From Candidatus Poribacteria bacterium (lineage in GTDB: Bacteria; Abyssobacteria; SURF-5): a DNA stretch of 14,930 bases. The stretch is from NCBI GenBank assembly GCA_016215705.1, contig JACRIR010000066.1, forward strand, positions 1 through 14,930, given 5' to 3'. Shown in pieces: positions 4,666 through 9,658 of the stretch. A program made the position numbers and the translations under genes. Within the stretch, counting starts at the first letter, position 1. The number at the start of each line of letters is the position of its first letter. The notes beneath the pieces were generated by a model, which did no database searches, had not been told where the DNA came from, and was given only the letters and a program-made list of their open reading frames with translations.

Positions 4666-7600
4666 TCAGTTCTTGATCTCAAGCACTACGGGTTTAGCGA
4701 AGTTCTCGACCGATGGGTCGTAGTATTCGTAGACGCGGGACACAGGCGTCTTTGCTTTGACCGGGAATTTCGCCCTGAGTTGGTACGAGAGTCTTAGTTC
4801 TGCACGCGGGCCGATCTTGCTGAGGTAAACGATTATCTGGCGTCCCGTCAGTGTGTATTTCTCGATTGTTTTTTGTTCGACCAGTTTCTGCAACCCGTCG
4901 GACTGCACTTCGAAGCCGGGGGGAACGCCCAAATCCACGATGACCATGTTGGCGGCTGCCGGCCGGTTATTGAATATGCGGACATTGCAGGAAACCATAT
5001 CATCCTTCTCGAGGCGGGTCTTGTCGTAATTGACTTCAATCGTCAAGGGCTCCTGCAGCGCTTTCTCGTCAGCTCGCCATGGCAGGTAGTAGCGCCCGAC
5101 AATCTGATAAAGCATGCTTCCCTTGCCTTCGAACCGGATTCTCACGTTATTGTTCCCCTTGTGCACGTGGGGCTTCAGGTCCACAAATCTCATCACATCG
5201 CTGTCGGCCGACGTAATCTTAATTGTCGTGACCGTCTTGTCATCGTGGCTGATGCTCACGTTCCCGTTGACATCCTCGGTTGCGTTGCCAAGCGCGATAA
5301 TCATGGCCTTAAGGGCGAGCACGGTCGCCTGAGTCGAATACCATGTGCCCGCCGGGTCCTTCGCGCGTATGAGGTAGGTCATCGCCTTGTTGACAACATC
5401 GGAATGGCGGCCTGACCTGATGAACGCGATAGTCGCCATCGCAGTTGTCTCGATGTCGGCGCCTTTTCCGTTCCCAAATGTCATAGTTTCCAGTTTGGAT
5501 TCCCAATGGATCGCGCCATTCTCTTCCTTTTTCAGCTCCAACAGTTTGAGGAACGCATCTTCGTTCTGCTTGTCGGCTAATACGAGCGCGTTTGCACAAA
5601 GTGCGAGCAGGTATGGATCGTTTGCCTCATTCAAGTGGTTCTTTATGTAACTCACCGCCTTCTGCGCCTCGGGACCGTTGTAGCCCGATTCCAGAAGCGC
5701 CCACGCTATGTATGCGGTCACGGGCAGGTTACTATTCTGAATGCGTCCCCAGCTTTCCTGATGCAGATAGGACTGATCTGGCGACCAGCTTCCGTCGTTT
5801 TGCTGCTTCGAGAGCAACCAGCGCTGAGTCCTGTCGATGACAGCCGGGTCAACCTCGTGCACTTTGGACATGTCCTTGAACTCCATGAGGCCATAGGCCG
5901 TCAGAATCTGATTCGCTGGCGGATTTCCGAACCACTCGAATCCGCCTCCGGCAACCTCGAAGCTCAAGAGCCGCTGATAACCCGTATTGATAAACCCCTC
6001 GGCCTTCATCTGCACTTCAGGCGTTATCTGTTTCGTGGTCTTCATGTAATCGACCACGAGAATGTTAGGATAAGTCGTCGAGGACGTCTGTTCGAAACAG
6101 CCGAAAGGCATTTGAAGGATGCTGTCAAGTCCCTCGACAACCTGGCTGAAAATGCCGGGATAGATTTTCACCAGGATTGTGCTTGCATCATCTATGGCGC
6201 CCGGCGGAATCTCAATGGTCTTTTCGACTGCGCCGGAGAGCCGGTCATTATAGTTGACAAGCGTTTCCTTGCCGTCGGGCAGAATCAGGACTTGCCGCTT
6301 AATCGCGTCATTCATCTTGCTGCCGAATCCGTGAACGGTCAGAGTCCGCCAGCCGACCTTCTTTGCCATGATAGTGAAATAGACAACCGCGACTTCATCT
6401 TTCTCGAGATCGATCTCCTTCACAGGATCGTCGAGTAGCTCGAACCAATCTTCCCGCGTGACTTCGAGTCGCACCTTTTGCGAACCGGGGAGATAATTGT
6501 AAACTGCGACAGGGATCGAGATTCTGTCGTTCTGGGTCAGCGCCGGAGGCAAGTCAATGTCAACAAAGAAATCCTGGAACACGCGCAGAGGGGTAGACAC
6601 GCTCCCGAGCGCGCCGCCAAGCGAAGATGCCATGGTCGCCATGCGCCACGTCGTTATTGAATCGGCCATCGAGAGAGAGACGCGCGCGTCGCCGTTCGGG
6701 CCGGTTATGATGGCCGGGTTGAAGTATAGTGTTTCGGGGAAGTATTCGCGTATGCGCACCTGGGGCTTGTCTTCGCCTGAAACAGTGGAAGCGACACCCG
6801 ACTTGGAAAGCTCATCCTTTTCCTTGTCGCCCACTGCATTGAAGGCAGCCTTCATTTGGGCCATCGGGGCCATGGCAGCCTCCTCGACCCTGCCGGCCAT
6901 ATCTGCCATACGACCGAGCAAGCGTCTTTCTTTCATTTCAGGCGAGTACGAGACTCTGACATCGTCCGTGGTGTTTGCCTTCTCGTCAGGTCCTATGCTC
7001 ACGAGTTGGAATGTGAGATAGTCATTCCACATGAAGCCCGCGTTCTCCACGCGATAGAAATTCCCCCACGGGTCCTTTGCGTCCGCAGCCTTCAGGAGGC
7101 GTTCGTCAACGAGGACAGCGAGGCTCTCCCCCTGGGATGGGAATCGACTGTGGCGTTTCTGGAATCGTTTCAGCGCCTCTTCCACTTTTTTTGTCTTCTC
7201 ACTCATGATCTTCTCTGCTTCTGTCCGGACAGCAGACTGTTTCGAGTCATATGTGTTGACTCTCAACGATGGCTCGCGGAGTGTTTCGGCAGAGGCAAGC
7301 AGAACGCGCGCAGCCTCCTTGCGCAATGATATTTCTTCCGGCCGGTTCGCCGGAGCATCCTTGAGGATGATGTCGTCGACATCATAGCCATGAATCTCAT
7401 AACGAGGTTTCATGAGTTCTTTTTCGAGTGTGAAGTAGACCTTTTCGAGTCCGGGCTGCATCTCTTGAAGCGCGAAGACGCTTTCGTCAACGATGCTGAC
7501 GCCGAGTGCGGCAAGCACTGGATGCCCCGTCTTGTCACGAACGAAGAACTGGATGCTCGCTTCTTCGCCCGGCCGGTATACGGCTTTGTCAGGTTTCACG

Positions 7601-9546
7601 TCGATTGTCAAATCATTTGCCGGATTGACATAAAGGAGCCGCGAATCACGGACAATGTCGGACGCCGGCGTTATCTGGTATGCGTTCATTTGCAGACTGC
7701 CGGAAAGGTCGGGCGAGAGAGCGACTTCGAGTTGGCCGCGTCCGTTCTGCAATTCGAGCGAGCGGGTCAGCACGGTCTGCCCTTCTTTTATAAGATCGAC
7801 ATACACGGTTCCCCTTGTGCGCGTAGCGAGAACCGTGGCTCGCACGCTGTCGCCGACTTTGTATAGAGCCTGGTCCGTGCGCAAGAGAATGTGATGCTCG
7901 CCCGGCTGCGCATAAAGGGTTATCGTTTTCTCGGCGCGATTGCCCTGTTTGTCGCGGGCGCTGACAGTGATGTCGTGTTGGTTGGCGGTCGGAGTCAGCT
8001 TAATGCTCGTGATTCCGAGCGCATCGGTTTTCAGACCGGTTATCTTCGTGTTCGTCGGGGCAATGCTCACGTCGACGTTGGCAACCGCGGGCCGTCCGTC
8101 AGGATAAGTGGCGACAATGTACACAATATTCTCGACGTCCGGCACGAGGGTTCCGCTTTCAGGAATCGCCACCACTATCAGCGGATCAGCGGCGACGTTC
8201 ACGTTTCGAGTTATTCCTTCCTTGTGGTCGGCCCCATCGACTATTCGCAAGTCTATTTTGACAAACGCCTTCCCCTGCTGGAGCGGCTGGCCGACAAAAT
8301 ATTCCGGCAGCTTTGCCTCAAACGAGTAATGGCCTGCCGAATCCGTCTTCCCTTCCACGCGCAGAAATTGGCTGAATTCGACGTCGAATCTGGACAGTTC
8401 AACGACGACAATTCCATTGGTGACCGGTTTTCCGAAAAAATAGTCGCTTTGCACTTCGCCCCGGAGAGTTTCACCGGGCATGTAGTAATCCTTTTCCGTG
8501 GTCAGGTTAATCTTGAATTTCGGAAGGGCATAACGTTTCACCGTGACGTCCTTTTCGATTACGCTCTCCCCCACGGCTGCCCTTATTTTGTATGTTCCCA
8601 CATTGACTTCATCAGCCAGCATGAAATCTGCGGCTGCGATCCCGAATCTGTCGGTCTTTGCGTTGAGCTTGAATACCTTGTTTCCTTTTGCGTCCTGGAC
8701 TTCTATGAGCGCGCCCTCATTCGAAGCGGGCTGAAGGTTTGCGGTCAAAAGCGAAAGGCTGCGAATGTGTATGGTCTGGCCCGGCTGATACAAGGGCTTG
8801 TCGGTTGTAAGAAGGACCTTATAGGTTTTCTCGAGTCGGATGGGATTCTCAATGACATCCTCTCCAAGTGACGAGTTCACATGAACAACAAGGGTCTGTT
8901 GCCCTGTGACATTCTTGGGGATATCGAACGAAGCGTTCACGGTTCCGCTCTGGTCGGTGCGACCCCGAAATAGAGGGATTTCACGCGACGAACTCTTTAT
9001 GGCAAAGGTTACGCCCGCGTCAGGTATTGGTTCGCCGGTTGAATGGTTGAGCGCTATTAGTCGCAGCGAGGGTTTGCTGCCAACCAACAGCCTGTCCGAT
9101 CCGATTAGATGTGTTTCAAGTATGCCGACGGATTCCGCAAGGCTCTTCTTCCCCTCAATTTTGCCACCATCCGACAGCGTGAGGGTGTATTCGATGCAGT
9201 ACAGTTGCAGGTTCCTGTCCGGCGCGGGCGCCACCGCCATCTGATATGTGTGGTTCTTTTTGATTGCGAACACTGTGCTCGACTTTTTGGCAACAGTCTT
9301 GCCTTCGAGACTGACTATGCTTACCTCCAATTGCCCCCATTCGGGCGCCCCGCTTTTCCATTCGACCGGAATCTCGATTTTTGCGGTGTTCGCGTCAATG
9401 CGTGCATGAATTTTCGGCTCGTCAATGGCTGCAACAACTGGTTGGCGCCCTTCTGCGGCGAGAGCAATGAATTGGTGGATCACTACAAGACTGAGCGCAA
9501 GAAGAATGAGAATTGAGCAGATGTTGAGTAATCTTAATCTTTTCAT
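4666..9546 (-). CDS. Secreted bacterial alpha-2-macroglobulin with thioester and unusual bait region
   Basis: I start at ATG 9544-9546 because AGAGGGA lies about 10 nt before it. A more upstream ATG would add 15 residues before the signal peptide. The 1626-residue product opens MKRLRLLN, then a hydrophobic core, with probable cleavage after IALA near residue 30. There is no lipobox. Macroglobulin domains follow: MG2-like with TDKPLYQPGQT at about 248-258, then repeated MG modules. VYRPGEEASIQFFVRD at about 656-671 and VSIVDESVFAL at about 683-693 mark the bait-bearing module. The A2M block is REYFPETLYFNP at about 933-944 with DSITTWRMATMASS at about 962-975. The thioester is GCFEQ with Cys1150 and Gln1153, followed by an alpha-helical thioester domain to about 1425 and a C-terminal receptor-type domain. 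Family role: traps attacking proteases in the periplasm. No penicillin-binding protein 1C gene, its frequent partner, adjoins it. Residues about 782-867 resemble a GspG pseudopilin domain. Confidence 0.92.
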   Translation of the reverse strand: MKRLRLLNICSILILLALSLVVIHQFIALAAEGRQPVVAAIDEPKIHARIDANTAKIEIPVEWKSGAPEWGQLEVSIVSLEGKTVAKKSSTVFAIKKNHTYQMAVAPAPDRNLQLYCIEYTLTLSDGGKIEGKKSLAESVGILETHLIGSDRLLVGSKPSLRLIALNHSTGEPIPDAGVTFAIKSSSREIPLFRGRTDQSGTVNASFDIPKNVTGQQTLVVHVNSSLGEDVIENPIRLEKTYKVLLTTDKPLYQPGQTIHIRSLSLLTANLQPASNEGALIEVQDAKGNKVFKLNAKTDRFGIAAADFMLADEVNVGTYKIRAAVGESVIEKDVTVKRYALPKFKINLTTEKDYYMPGETLRGEVQSDYFFGKPVTNGIVVVELSRFDVEFSQFLRVEGKTDSAGHYSFEAKLPEYFVGQPLQQGKAFVKIDLRIVDGADHKEGITRNVNVAADPLIVVAIPESGTLVPDVENIVYIVATYPDGRPAVANVDVSIAPTNTKITGLKTDALGITSIKLTPTANQHDITVSARDKQGNRAEKTITLYAQPGEHHILLRTDQALYKVGDSVRATVLATRTRGTVYVDLIKEGQTVLTRSLELQNGRGQLEVALSPDLSGSLQMNAYQITPASDIVRDSRLLYVNPANDLTIDVKPDKAVYRPGEEASIQFFVRDKTGHPVLAALGVSIVDESVFALQEMQPGLEKVYFTLEKELMKPRYEIHGYDVDDIILKDAPANRPEEISLRKEAARVLLASAETLREPSLRVNTYDSKQSAVRTEAEKIMSEKTKKVEEALKRFQKRHSRFPSQGESLAVLVDERLLKAADAKDPWGNFYRVENAGFMWNDYLTFQLVSIGPDEKANTTDDVRVSYSPEMKERRLLGRMADMAGRVEEAAMAPMAQMKAAFNAVGDKEKDELSKSGVASTVSGEDKPQVRIREYFPETLYFNPAIITGPNGDARVSLSMADSITTWRMATMASSLGGALGSVSTPLRVFQDFFVDIDLPPALTQNDRISIPVAVYNYLPGSQKVRLEVTREDWFELLDDPVKEIDLEKDEVAVVYFTIMAKKVGWRTLTVHGFGSKMNDAIKRQVLILPDGKETLVNYNDRLSGAVEKTIEIPPGAIDDASTILVKIYPGIFSQVVEGLDSILQMPFGCFEQTSSTTYPNILVVDYMKTTKQITPEVQMKAEGFINTGYQRLLSFEVAGGGFEWFGNPPANQILTAYGLMEFKDMSKVHEVDPAVIDRTQRWLLSKQQNDGSWSPDQSYLHQESWGRIQNSNLPVTAYIAWALLESGYNGPEAQKAVSYIKNHLNEANDPYLLALCANALVLADKQNEDAFLKLLELKKEENGAIHWESKLETMTFGNGKGADIETTAMATIAFIRSGRHSDVVNKAMTYLIRAKDPAGTWYSTQATVLALKAMIIALGNATEDVNGNVSISHDDKTVTTIKITSADSDVMRFVDLKPHVHKGNNNVRIRFEGKGSMLYQIVGRYYLPWRADEKALQEPLTIEVNYDKTRLEKDDMVSCNVRIFNNRPAAANMVIVDLGVPPGFEVQSDGLQKLVEQKTIEKYTLTGRQIIVYLSKIGPRAELRLSYQLRAKFPVKAKTPVSRVYEYYDPSVENFAKPVVLEIKN

Positions 9547-9658
9547 GGTTTCCGTCCCTCTTTCGTTTGCCGGCATACGAGATACCGACACTTGTTTGTG
9601 GACCGTGTTCCTGCCAGTATAAACGAACGAGGAGACAAAAAGATTTGTGATACAAGAA

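What the first reader, a model, noticed from the sequence alone, without database searches (positions are those of the whole stretch)
6946..7203. A GspG pseudopilin-like domain inside the bait region of an alpha-2-macroglobulin
Residues about 782-867 of the macroglobulin hold an N-terminal amphipathic helix (EEALKRFQKRHSRFPS), then DPWGNFYRV, then LVSIGPDEKANTTDDVRV. That order, helix with 'RFP', then DPWGNPY, then S-(L/I)-G-x-D-x-x-x-x-T-x-D-D, is the signature of the C-terminal domain of type II secretion major pseudopilins, including the calcium-binding acidic loop. It sits between the VSIVDESVFAL block and the REYFPETLYF block, where the protease-sensitive bait belongs. A Met/Ala-rich flexible stretch follows it. 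I know of no described macroglobulin with this insert. It could present a pilin-like decoy, sense calcium or dock on a secretion machine.
Basis: partly seen in the sequence, partly recalled or inferred. Interest (0 to 1): 0.75.

Follow-up and report, generated by a model that had tools for sequence, protein, structure and literature searches.

The report
Protease trap carrying a pseudopilin domain
A whole family of bacterial relatives of our blood protease trap alpha-2-macroglobulin carries, right beside the 'bait' that proteases cut, a small calcium-binding domain borrowed from a bacterial secretion machine, and no published description of it was found.

Summary
The minus-strand gene at 4666-9546 encodes a 1,626-residue thioester alpha-macroglobulin. 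Residues 782-866 are a real T2SSG/GspG-type domain: 25-33 bits against a 21-bit cut-off, profile match to solved GspG 3g20 at E 8e-9, and a confident model whose seven best structural matches are all GspG/PulG (Z up to 9.7). It is not a one-off. All 86 aligned family members from many phyla, and all 17 members met in a similarity-unbiased sample of 386 genomes, carry it at the same site. The three side-chain calcium ligands of GspG are kept in 82 of 86. Related macroglobulins outside the family lack it, and the tree needs only one gain.

The domain is not the bait itself. It lies just before a disordered Ala/Gly/Met-rich stretch, the likely bait, in the slot that holds the anaphylatoxin domain in complement C3. 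It lacks the pilin membrane helix, so it cannot polymerise as a pseudopilin. Most likely mechanism (inferred): a calcium-stapled folded spacer that presents the bait and stops it being pulled through the central channel. Docking on a secretion machine, and calcium sensing, remain open. No description was found in the open literature searched. Function is untested.

The parts
4666..9546 (-). gene of the alpha-macroglobulin (P0002, 1,626 aa, ATG at 9546; an upstream in-frame GTG at 9591 is the mechanical ORF start)
9454..9546 (-). hydrophobic N-terminus (residues 1-31), probable signal peptide without lipobox Cys
   Evidence: sequence read directly; inference
8548..8817 (-). MG2 domain (244-333)
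   Evidence: Pfam PF01835
8323..8532 (-). MG3 domain (339-408)
   Evidence: Pfam PF17791
7468..7884 (-). A2M_BRD region (555-693), up to the first part of MG6
   Evidence: Pfam PF07703
7387..7491 (-). conserved VDESVFALQEMQPGLEKVYFTLEKELMKPRYEIHG (686-720), the linker leading out of MG6
   Evidence: pairwise identity 0.68 at 700-720
7222..7386 (-). variable linker with a helix and the NTY motif (721-775)
6949..7203 (-). T2SSG/GspG-type domain (782-866), inserted between MG6 and the bait
7063..7074 (-). DPWG motif (825-828), Asp invariant in 86 of 86
6961..6996 (-). calcium loop IGPDEKANTTDD (851-862); ligands by homology with 3g20: side chains D854, T859, D862
   Evidence: (PMC3396595)
6769..6939 (-). 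disordered Ala/Gly/Met-rich stretch (870-926), probable true bait
   Evidence: pLDDT about 25-45; composition
6463..6759 (-). alpha'NT-like REYFPET plus MG6/MG7 (930-1028)
   Evidence: Pfam PF00207
5302..6153 (-). thioester domain (1132-1415)
   Evidence: Pfam PF07678
6088..6102 (-). thioester motif GCFEQ (1149-1153)
4705..4956 (-). A2M receptor-binding type domain (1531-1614)
   Evidence: Pfam PF07677

Best explanation
This is a secreted or periplasmic bacterial thioester alpha-macroglobulin whose bait segment has two parts: a folded GspG-type domain of about 82 residues, then about 60 disordered residues. Shown by computation: the domain is homologous to GspG, keeps its fold and calcium ligands, is consistent with a single gain, is fixed across the family members seen, and occupies the slot between MG6/linker and alpha'NT where complement C3 holds its anaphylatoxin domain. 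Inferred: a protease cuts the disordered stretch; the C-terminal stub retracts through the central channel, as proposed and supported by mutagenesis for human A2M; the thioester (GCFEQ) is activated and couples to the protease. The GspG-type domain, kept rigid and protease-resistant by calcium, acts as a folded spacer and stopper: it holds the bait out from the body, steers cutting to the flexible part and stays on the N-terminal half after the cut.
For: Domain identity: Pfam T2SSG over cut-off; 58 of 86 family members match T2SSG on their own; family profile finds only GspG/PulG entries in the PDB, best 3g20 at E 7.7e-9; model of the insert pLDDT 92-98 over most of the core, Foldseek best hit 3g20, probability 1.00, VIA-align Z 9.7, rmsd 2.9 over 104 residues, top seven all GspG/PulG. 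Conservation inside the least conserved part of the protein: D825 86/86, G852 85/86, D854 82/86, D861 and D862 85/86; calcium ligand set complete in 82/86, ligands from 3g20 as reported in PMC3396595. Two-part bait: residues 870-926 disordered (pLDDT about 25-45) next to an ordered domain in the 1,200-residue model; that stretch is 17% Ala, 15% Gly, 6.5% Met against 6.3, 6.1 and 2.2% in MG7-TED, and has pairwise identity 0.16 against 0.29 for the domain. Trap parts present: MG domains, TED, GCFEQ, receptor domain; whole-protein fold matches CD109, A2ML1, A2M. One origin: tree on MG7-TED needs one change for the label over 92 carriers. Trigger mechanism in human A2M: PMC9352918.
Against: No activity of any member is known; protease capture is inferred from homology. 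A flexible bait works in other macroglobulins without a folded spacer, so the need for this domain is unexplained. Strict conservation of a calcium loop might mean a binding or sensing role rather than a mere spacer. I could not measure on the model where the domain sits relative to the channel, and inter-domain placement in the 1,200-residue model is uncertain (pTM 0.55).
Confidence: 0.5

Rival explanations
1. Docking module: the GspG-type domain binds a type II secretion pseudopilus, a type IV pilus or the secretin, so the trap is exported by it or stationed at the gate where proteases pass.
For: The domain is a true homologue of the major pseudopilin. All eight carrier genomes tested have secretins and T2SSE/PilB-type ATPases.
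Against: The hydrophobic assembly helix is missing in all 86 (no 19-residue window reaches 1.6; prepilin-like motif 2 of 86). In G242, G103 and G359 no canonical GspG is seen; in G103 and G242 the macroglobulin is the only T2SSG match (genomes 83-93% complete). Secretins and these ATPases are common, so co-occurrence says little. No conserved gene neighbour, such as a gsp operon, was found.
Confidence: 0.15
2. Calcium switch: the domain folds only with calcium, so the trap is armed outside the cell or in calcium-rich surroundings and its bait changes in exposure with calcium.
For: Ligand set complete in 82 of 86 while the surrounding sequence drifts. The same loop binds calcium in GspG 3g20 and as a peptide from bacterial peroxidases (PMC3396595).
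Against: No evidence of a switch here; a structural calcium explains the conservation as well. Four members have an altered loop (L083, L087, L104, L107) and yet keep the insert.
Confidence: 0.15
3. Released or exposed effector: like C3a, the domain is freed or unmasked by cleavage and then acts as a signal or ligand.
For: It sits in the anaphylatoxin slot, between the linker after MG6 and alpha'NT.
Against: The expected cut lies on its C-terminal side, so one cut leaves it attached to the N-terminal half; the variable linker 721-775 shows no strongly conserved site (identity 0.23). The fold is not anaphylatoxin-like.
Confidence: 0.08
4. Evolutionary passenger: a domain that landed in a tolerant slot and is kept only because it folds.
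For: The slot tolerates inserts: L009 seems to hold two copies, and a relative, L143, holds an OmpA domain there.
Against: One gain kept in 92 of 92 carriers over many phyla, with near-invariant ligand residues.
Confidence: 0.1

Closest known systems
Metazoan A2M / CD109 / A2ML1 / TEP1 (alpha-macroglobulin superfamily)
   Same: MG2, MG3, BRD, MG7, TED with GCxEQ, receptor-type domain; best PDB sequence hits human A2M (E 3e-71) and CD109; best fold hits CD109, A2ML1, A2M
   Different: A GspG-type domain precedes the bait; to my knowledge none of these solved relatives has one
Escherichia coli ECAM (YfhM) and Salmonella A2M, bacterial type I A2Ms
   Same: bacterial thioester macroglobulins, same overall layout
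   Different: far more distant in sequence (5a42 E 1.4e-7) and, as far as I know, no folded insert in the bait; type I genes adjoin pbpC in a number of bacteria (PMC5764988), whereas no shared neighbour was found here
GspG/PulG/EpsG major pseudopilin (Pfam T2SSG)
   Same: C-terminal fold, DPWG motif and calcium loop
   Different: no N-terminal transmembrane assembly helix or conserved prepilin site; embedded in a 1,626-residue protein; shorter stretch between the helix and DPWG than in most GspG
Complement C3/C4/C5 anaphylatoxin domain
   Same: a small folded domain in the same slot of the same scaffold
   Different: unrelated fold; here a long disordered stretch follows the domain
PERCAL calcium loops of bacterial heme peroxidases (PMC3396595)
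   Same: G-x-D-x-x-x-x-[TN]-x-D-D loop in a non-pilin protein
   Different: there short loop-bearing insertions in a peroxidase domain, here a whole T2SSG domain

Membership tests
alpha-macroglobulin superfamily | MG domains, TED and receptor-type domain in order | tested here: met
   Pfam MG2, MG3, A2M_BRD, A2M, TED_complement, A2M_recep over cut-offs; fold match
alpha-macroglobulin superfamily | CxEQ thioester motif | tested here: met
   GCFEQ at 1149-1153, invariant in six aligned members
alpha-macroglobulin superfamily | flexible bait between MG6 and alpha'NT | tested here: met
   870-926 predicted disordered; composition
alpha-macroglobulin superfamily | covalent protease capture after bait cleavage | not testable with these tools
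   needs protein
GspG major pseudopilin (as a protein) | T2SSG C-terminal fold | tested here: met
GspG major pseudopilin (as a protein) | calcium-ligand residues D, T/N/S, D | tested here: met
   82 of 86; ligands per PMC3396595
GspG major pseudopilin (as a protein) | N-terminal prepilin cleavage site and hydrophobic assembly helix | tested here: not met
   no hydrophobic window of 1.6 or more in any of 86; motif in 2 of 86 against 15 of 22 GspG-like frames
GspG major pseudopilin (as a protein) | stand-alone gene in a gsp operon | tested here: not met
   part of a 1,626-residue frame; no shared neighbours
C3-type anaphylatoxin domain | position between the linker after MG6 and alpha'NT | tested here: met
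   C3 aligns from residue 930 on and the cobra venom factor alpha chain up to residue 709; the insert lies between
C3-type anaphylatoxin domain | disulfide-linked helical anaphylatoxin fold | tested here: not met
   model has one long helix and a small sheet, best matches GspG; Cys 0.5% in the domain

The most novel reading that the evidence does not exclude
A multi-phylum family of bacterial protease traps, nearer to the animal A2M/complement line than the studied E. coli protein, uses a captured pseudopilin domain as a functional element of its trigger (calcium-dependent gate or docking site), a bacterial counterpart of the anaphylatoxin domain in complement.
Probability: 0.3. Interest if true: 0.8.

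Novelty: new variant of a known kind. Interest (0 to 1): 0.62.

Why it matters
It defines a widespread bacterial macroglobulin subfamily with a fixed domain in the trigger region, shows that the bait/anaphylatoxin slot has been filled by unrelated domains (anaphylatoxin in complement, GspG here, OmpA in a relative), and takes a secretion-system domain out of its usual context. It offers a clean test of whether an added folded module can tune the plug-in-channel trigger proposed for all A2M proteins, and sequences for tracing the link between bacterial and animal macroglobulins.

Tried and rejected
Chance match: rejected. Assembly chimera or single-genome oddity: rejected, the same joint occurs in unrelated genomes. 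Recent capture from the host's own gspG: not supported, the insert lies nearest to other macroglobulin inserts, but the 99-column domain tree is poorly resolved; monophyly of inserts is neither shown nor rejected (p-AU 0.234). Conserved operon partner (pbpC, gsp genes): none found across 81 loci beyond phylum-local clusters (crude ORF clustering). Absence of a T2SS in carriers as a refutation of docking: inconclusive, all tested carriers have secretin and ATPase. NCBIfam: no named family over cut-off. Literature: no paper holds both 'T2SSG' and 'macroglobulin'; macroglobulin with pseudopilin, planctomycetes or armatimonad terms gave nothing relevant. Only open-licence PMC papers were searched.

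Full report
What is there. The finding's coordinates lie inside a minus-strand gene, 4666-9546, encoding a 1,626-residue protein. Pfam finds MG2, MG3, A2M_BRD, A2M, TED and A2M_recep, and PF08334 T2SSG at residues 782-862. The T2SSG score is 25.1 bits in the whole protein and 32.7 bits for the segment alone; the curated cut-off is 21. The thioester is GCFEQ (1149-1153).

Is the domain real. Three lines agree. (a) Sequence: 58 of 86 family members match T2SSG on their own at E 0.01 or better, and the family profile run against the PDB finds only GspG/PulG entries, 3g20 first at E 7.7e-9. (b) Structure: AlphaFold2 with 86 sequences gives pLDDT 92-98 over most of the core; Foldseek ranks GspG 3g20 first, probability 1.00, TM 0.59 on the target, although its E-value is only 0.009; VIA-align gives Z 9.7, rmsd 2.9 A over 104 residues, and the first seven rows are all GspG/PulG, followed by type IV pilins. 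(c) Conservation: in the most variable part of the protein D825 is invariant in 86 of 86, G852 and D861/D862 in 85 of 86.

Calcium site. In 3g20 the ligands are the side chains of D117, T122 and D125 and main-chain oxygens of P114 and V119, within PGPDGVPNTEDD (PMC3396595; the discussion of that paper counts position 8 as a main-chain contact). The window has IGPDEKANTTDD, with D854, T859 and D862 in the corresponding positions. The set D, T/N/S, D is complete in 82 of 86 members; three more have N for the first Asp and one (L107) has lost the loop. Calcium binding itself is inferred.

How widespread. A search of one genome for each of 84,980 species found 456 relatives of the MG6-insert-thioester segment; the 80 best were kept, from records titled Armatimonadota, Planctomycetota, Hydrogenedentota, WOR-3/Stahlbacteria, Cloacimonadota, Poribacteria, KSB3, Eremiobacterota, Acidobacteriota, Myxococcota/Deltaproteobacteria, Chloroflexi and Bacillota bins, mostly MAGs, so some labels may be wrong. 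All carry the insert. That set was chosen by similarity to a query that includes the insert, so a second sample was taken: 386 genomes chosen by kinship only. Seventeen of them hold a member of this family, in about 14 family-level groups, and all 17 have the insert: five seen by alignment and twelve by a profile of the insert (a few of those twelve are the same species as training rows). More distant macroglobulins fetched at the same time gave no insert hit even at E 1. They include second copies in two carrier genomes (L139, L140, thioester GCGEQ) and a family with GCFEQ (L141-L143).

Evolution. A tree of 112 proteins built on the MG7-TED part only, without the insert, needs one change for the insert label over 92 carriers (support of that branch is modest, SH-aLRT 72). 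One gain and no complete loss is the simplest reading. On 99 columns, the domain tree puts the window's insert nearest to other macroglobulin inserts; it cannot prove or reject one clade against GspG (p-AU 0.234).

Position and the two-part bait. PDB comparisons align the cobra venom factor alpha chain up to residue 709 and C3 from residue 930 on, so the insert fills the slot of the C3 anaphylatoxin domain. Between the domain and REYFPET lie about 60 residues (median 63.5) rich in Ala (17%), Gly (15%) and Met (6.5%), the least conserved stretch measured (pairwise identity 0.16; domain 0.29; MG7 0.60), and predicted disordered in a 1,200-residue model (pLDDT about 25-45 at 870-926). That stretch, not the T2SSG domain, is the likely bait.

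Mechanism. In human A2M the trigger is retraction of the cleaved bait's C-terminal end (alpha'NT) from a channel formed by MG2, MG3 and the linker (PMC9352918). The family keeps these parts. The inferred model is that cutting of 870-926 triggers the same change, while the calcium-stapled domain, N-terminal to the cut, serves as a rigid, protease-resistant spacer and stopper that presents the bait. I give this 0.5. Docking on a pilus or secretion machine (0.15) is weakened by the missing assembly helix and by carriers without canonical GspG (G103, G242, G359), but all eight carriers tested have secretin and ATPase genes, so it stays open. A calcium switch (0.15), a C3a-like released fragment (0.08) and a passenger domain (0.1) are the other rivals.

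Context. The protein is much nearer to metazoan A2M (E 3e-71) and CD109 than to E. coli ECAM (E 1.4e-7), and its fold ranks CD109 and A2ML1 first. T2SSG domains outside pseudopilins are not unique to this gene: the window's genome and G189 each have a FecR-like protein with a C-terminal T2SSG-like domain (L002, L169; the FecR label is my reading, not a test). In L143, a macroglobulin of a related family, an OmpA domain (PF00691, 45.6 bits) lies between the MG region and MG7, so the slot accepts different domains.

Novelty. No paper in the open-licence library combines T2SSG and macroglobulin, and other searches gave nothing on point. NCBIfam has no model that names it. Subscription papers could not be searched. 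I file it as a new variant of a known kind: an alpha-macroglobulin subfamily with a pseudopilin-type domain in the bait slot.

Noticed in passing
L143 (G265:C364), frame from 2060, residues 829-914: A related macroglobulin carries an OmpA-family domain (PF00691, 45.6 bits) in the region between the MG domains and MG7, i.e. about the same slot.
   Followed up: partly
L009:955-1974: Insert region of 331 residues with two DxWG motifs but one calcium loop, apparently a tandem copy of the T2SSG domain with one copy decayed.
   Followed up: no
L137/L140 (G145) and L138/L139 (G282): Two genomes hold a pair of macroglobulins: one with the insert, GCFEQ and a bait lengthened to hundreds of residues, one without the insert and with GCGEQ.
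   Followed up: partly
L002 (own genome, C199) and L169 (G189): Proteins that look FecR-like with a T2SSG-like domain at the C-terminus, a second non-pilin use of the domain.
   Followed up: partly
L006:3559-4281: The bait stretch holds CAQCHEPH, a CxxCH haem-attachment-like motif (Paired_CXXCH_1, E 0.004 to 0.01, under cut-off).
   Followed up: no
window 4666-9546: The bacterial protein is far nearer to animal A2M, CD109 and TEP1 than to E. coli YfhM, which bears on the old question of gene transfer between animals and bacteria.
   Followed up: partly
L157 (G087:C80): A 684-residue secreted-looking protein with a T2SSG-like segment near its N-terminus, unrelated to macroglobulins.
   Followed up: no
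L107:1419-2306: A Blastocatellia member keeps the position and a DPLG remnant but has lost the calcium loop.
   Followed up: no
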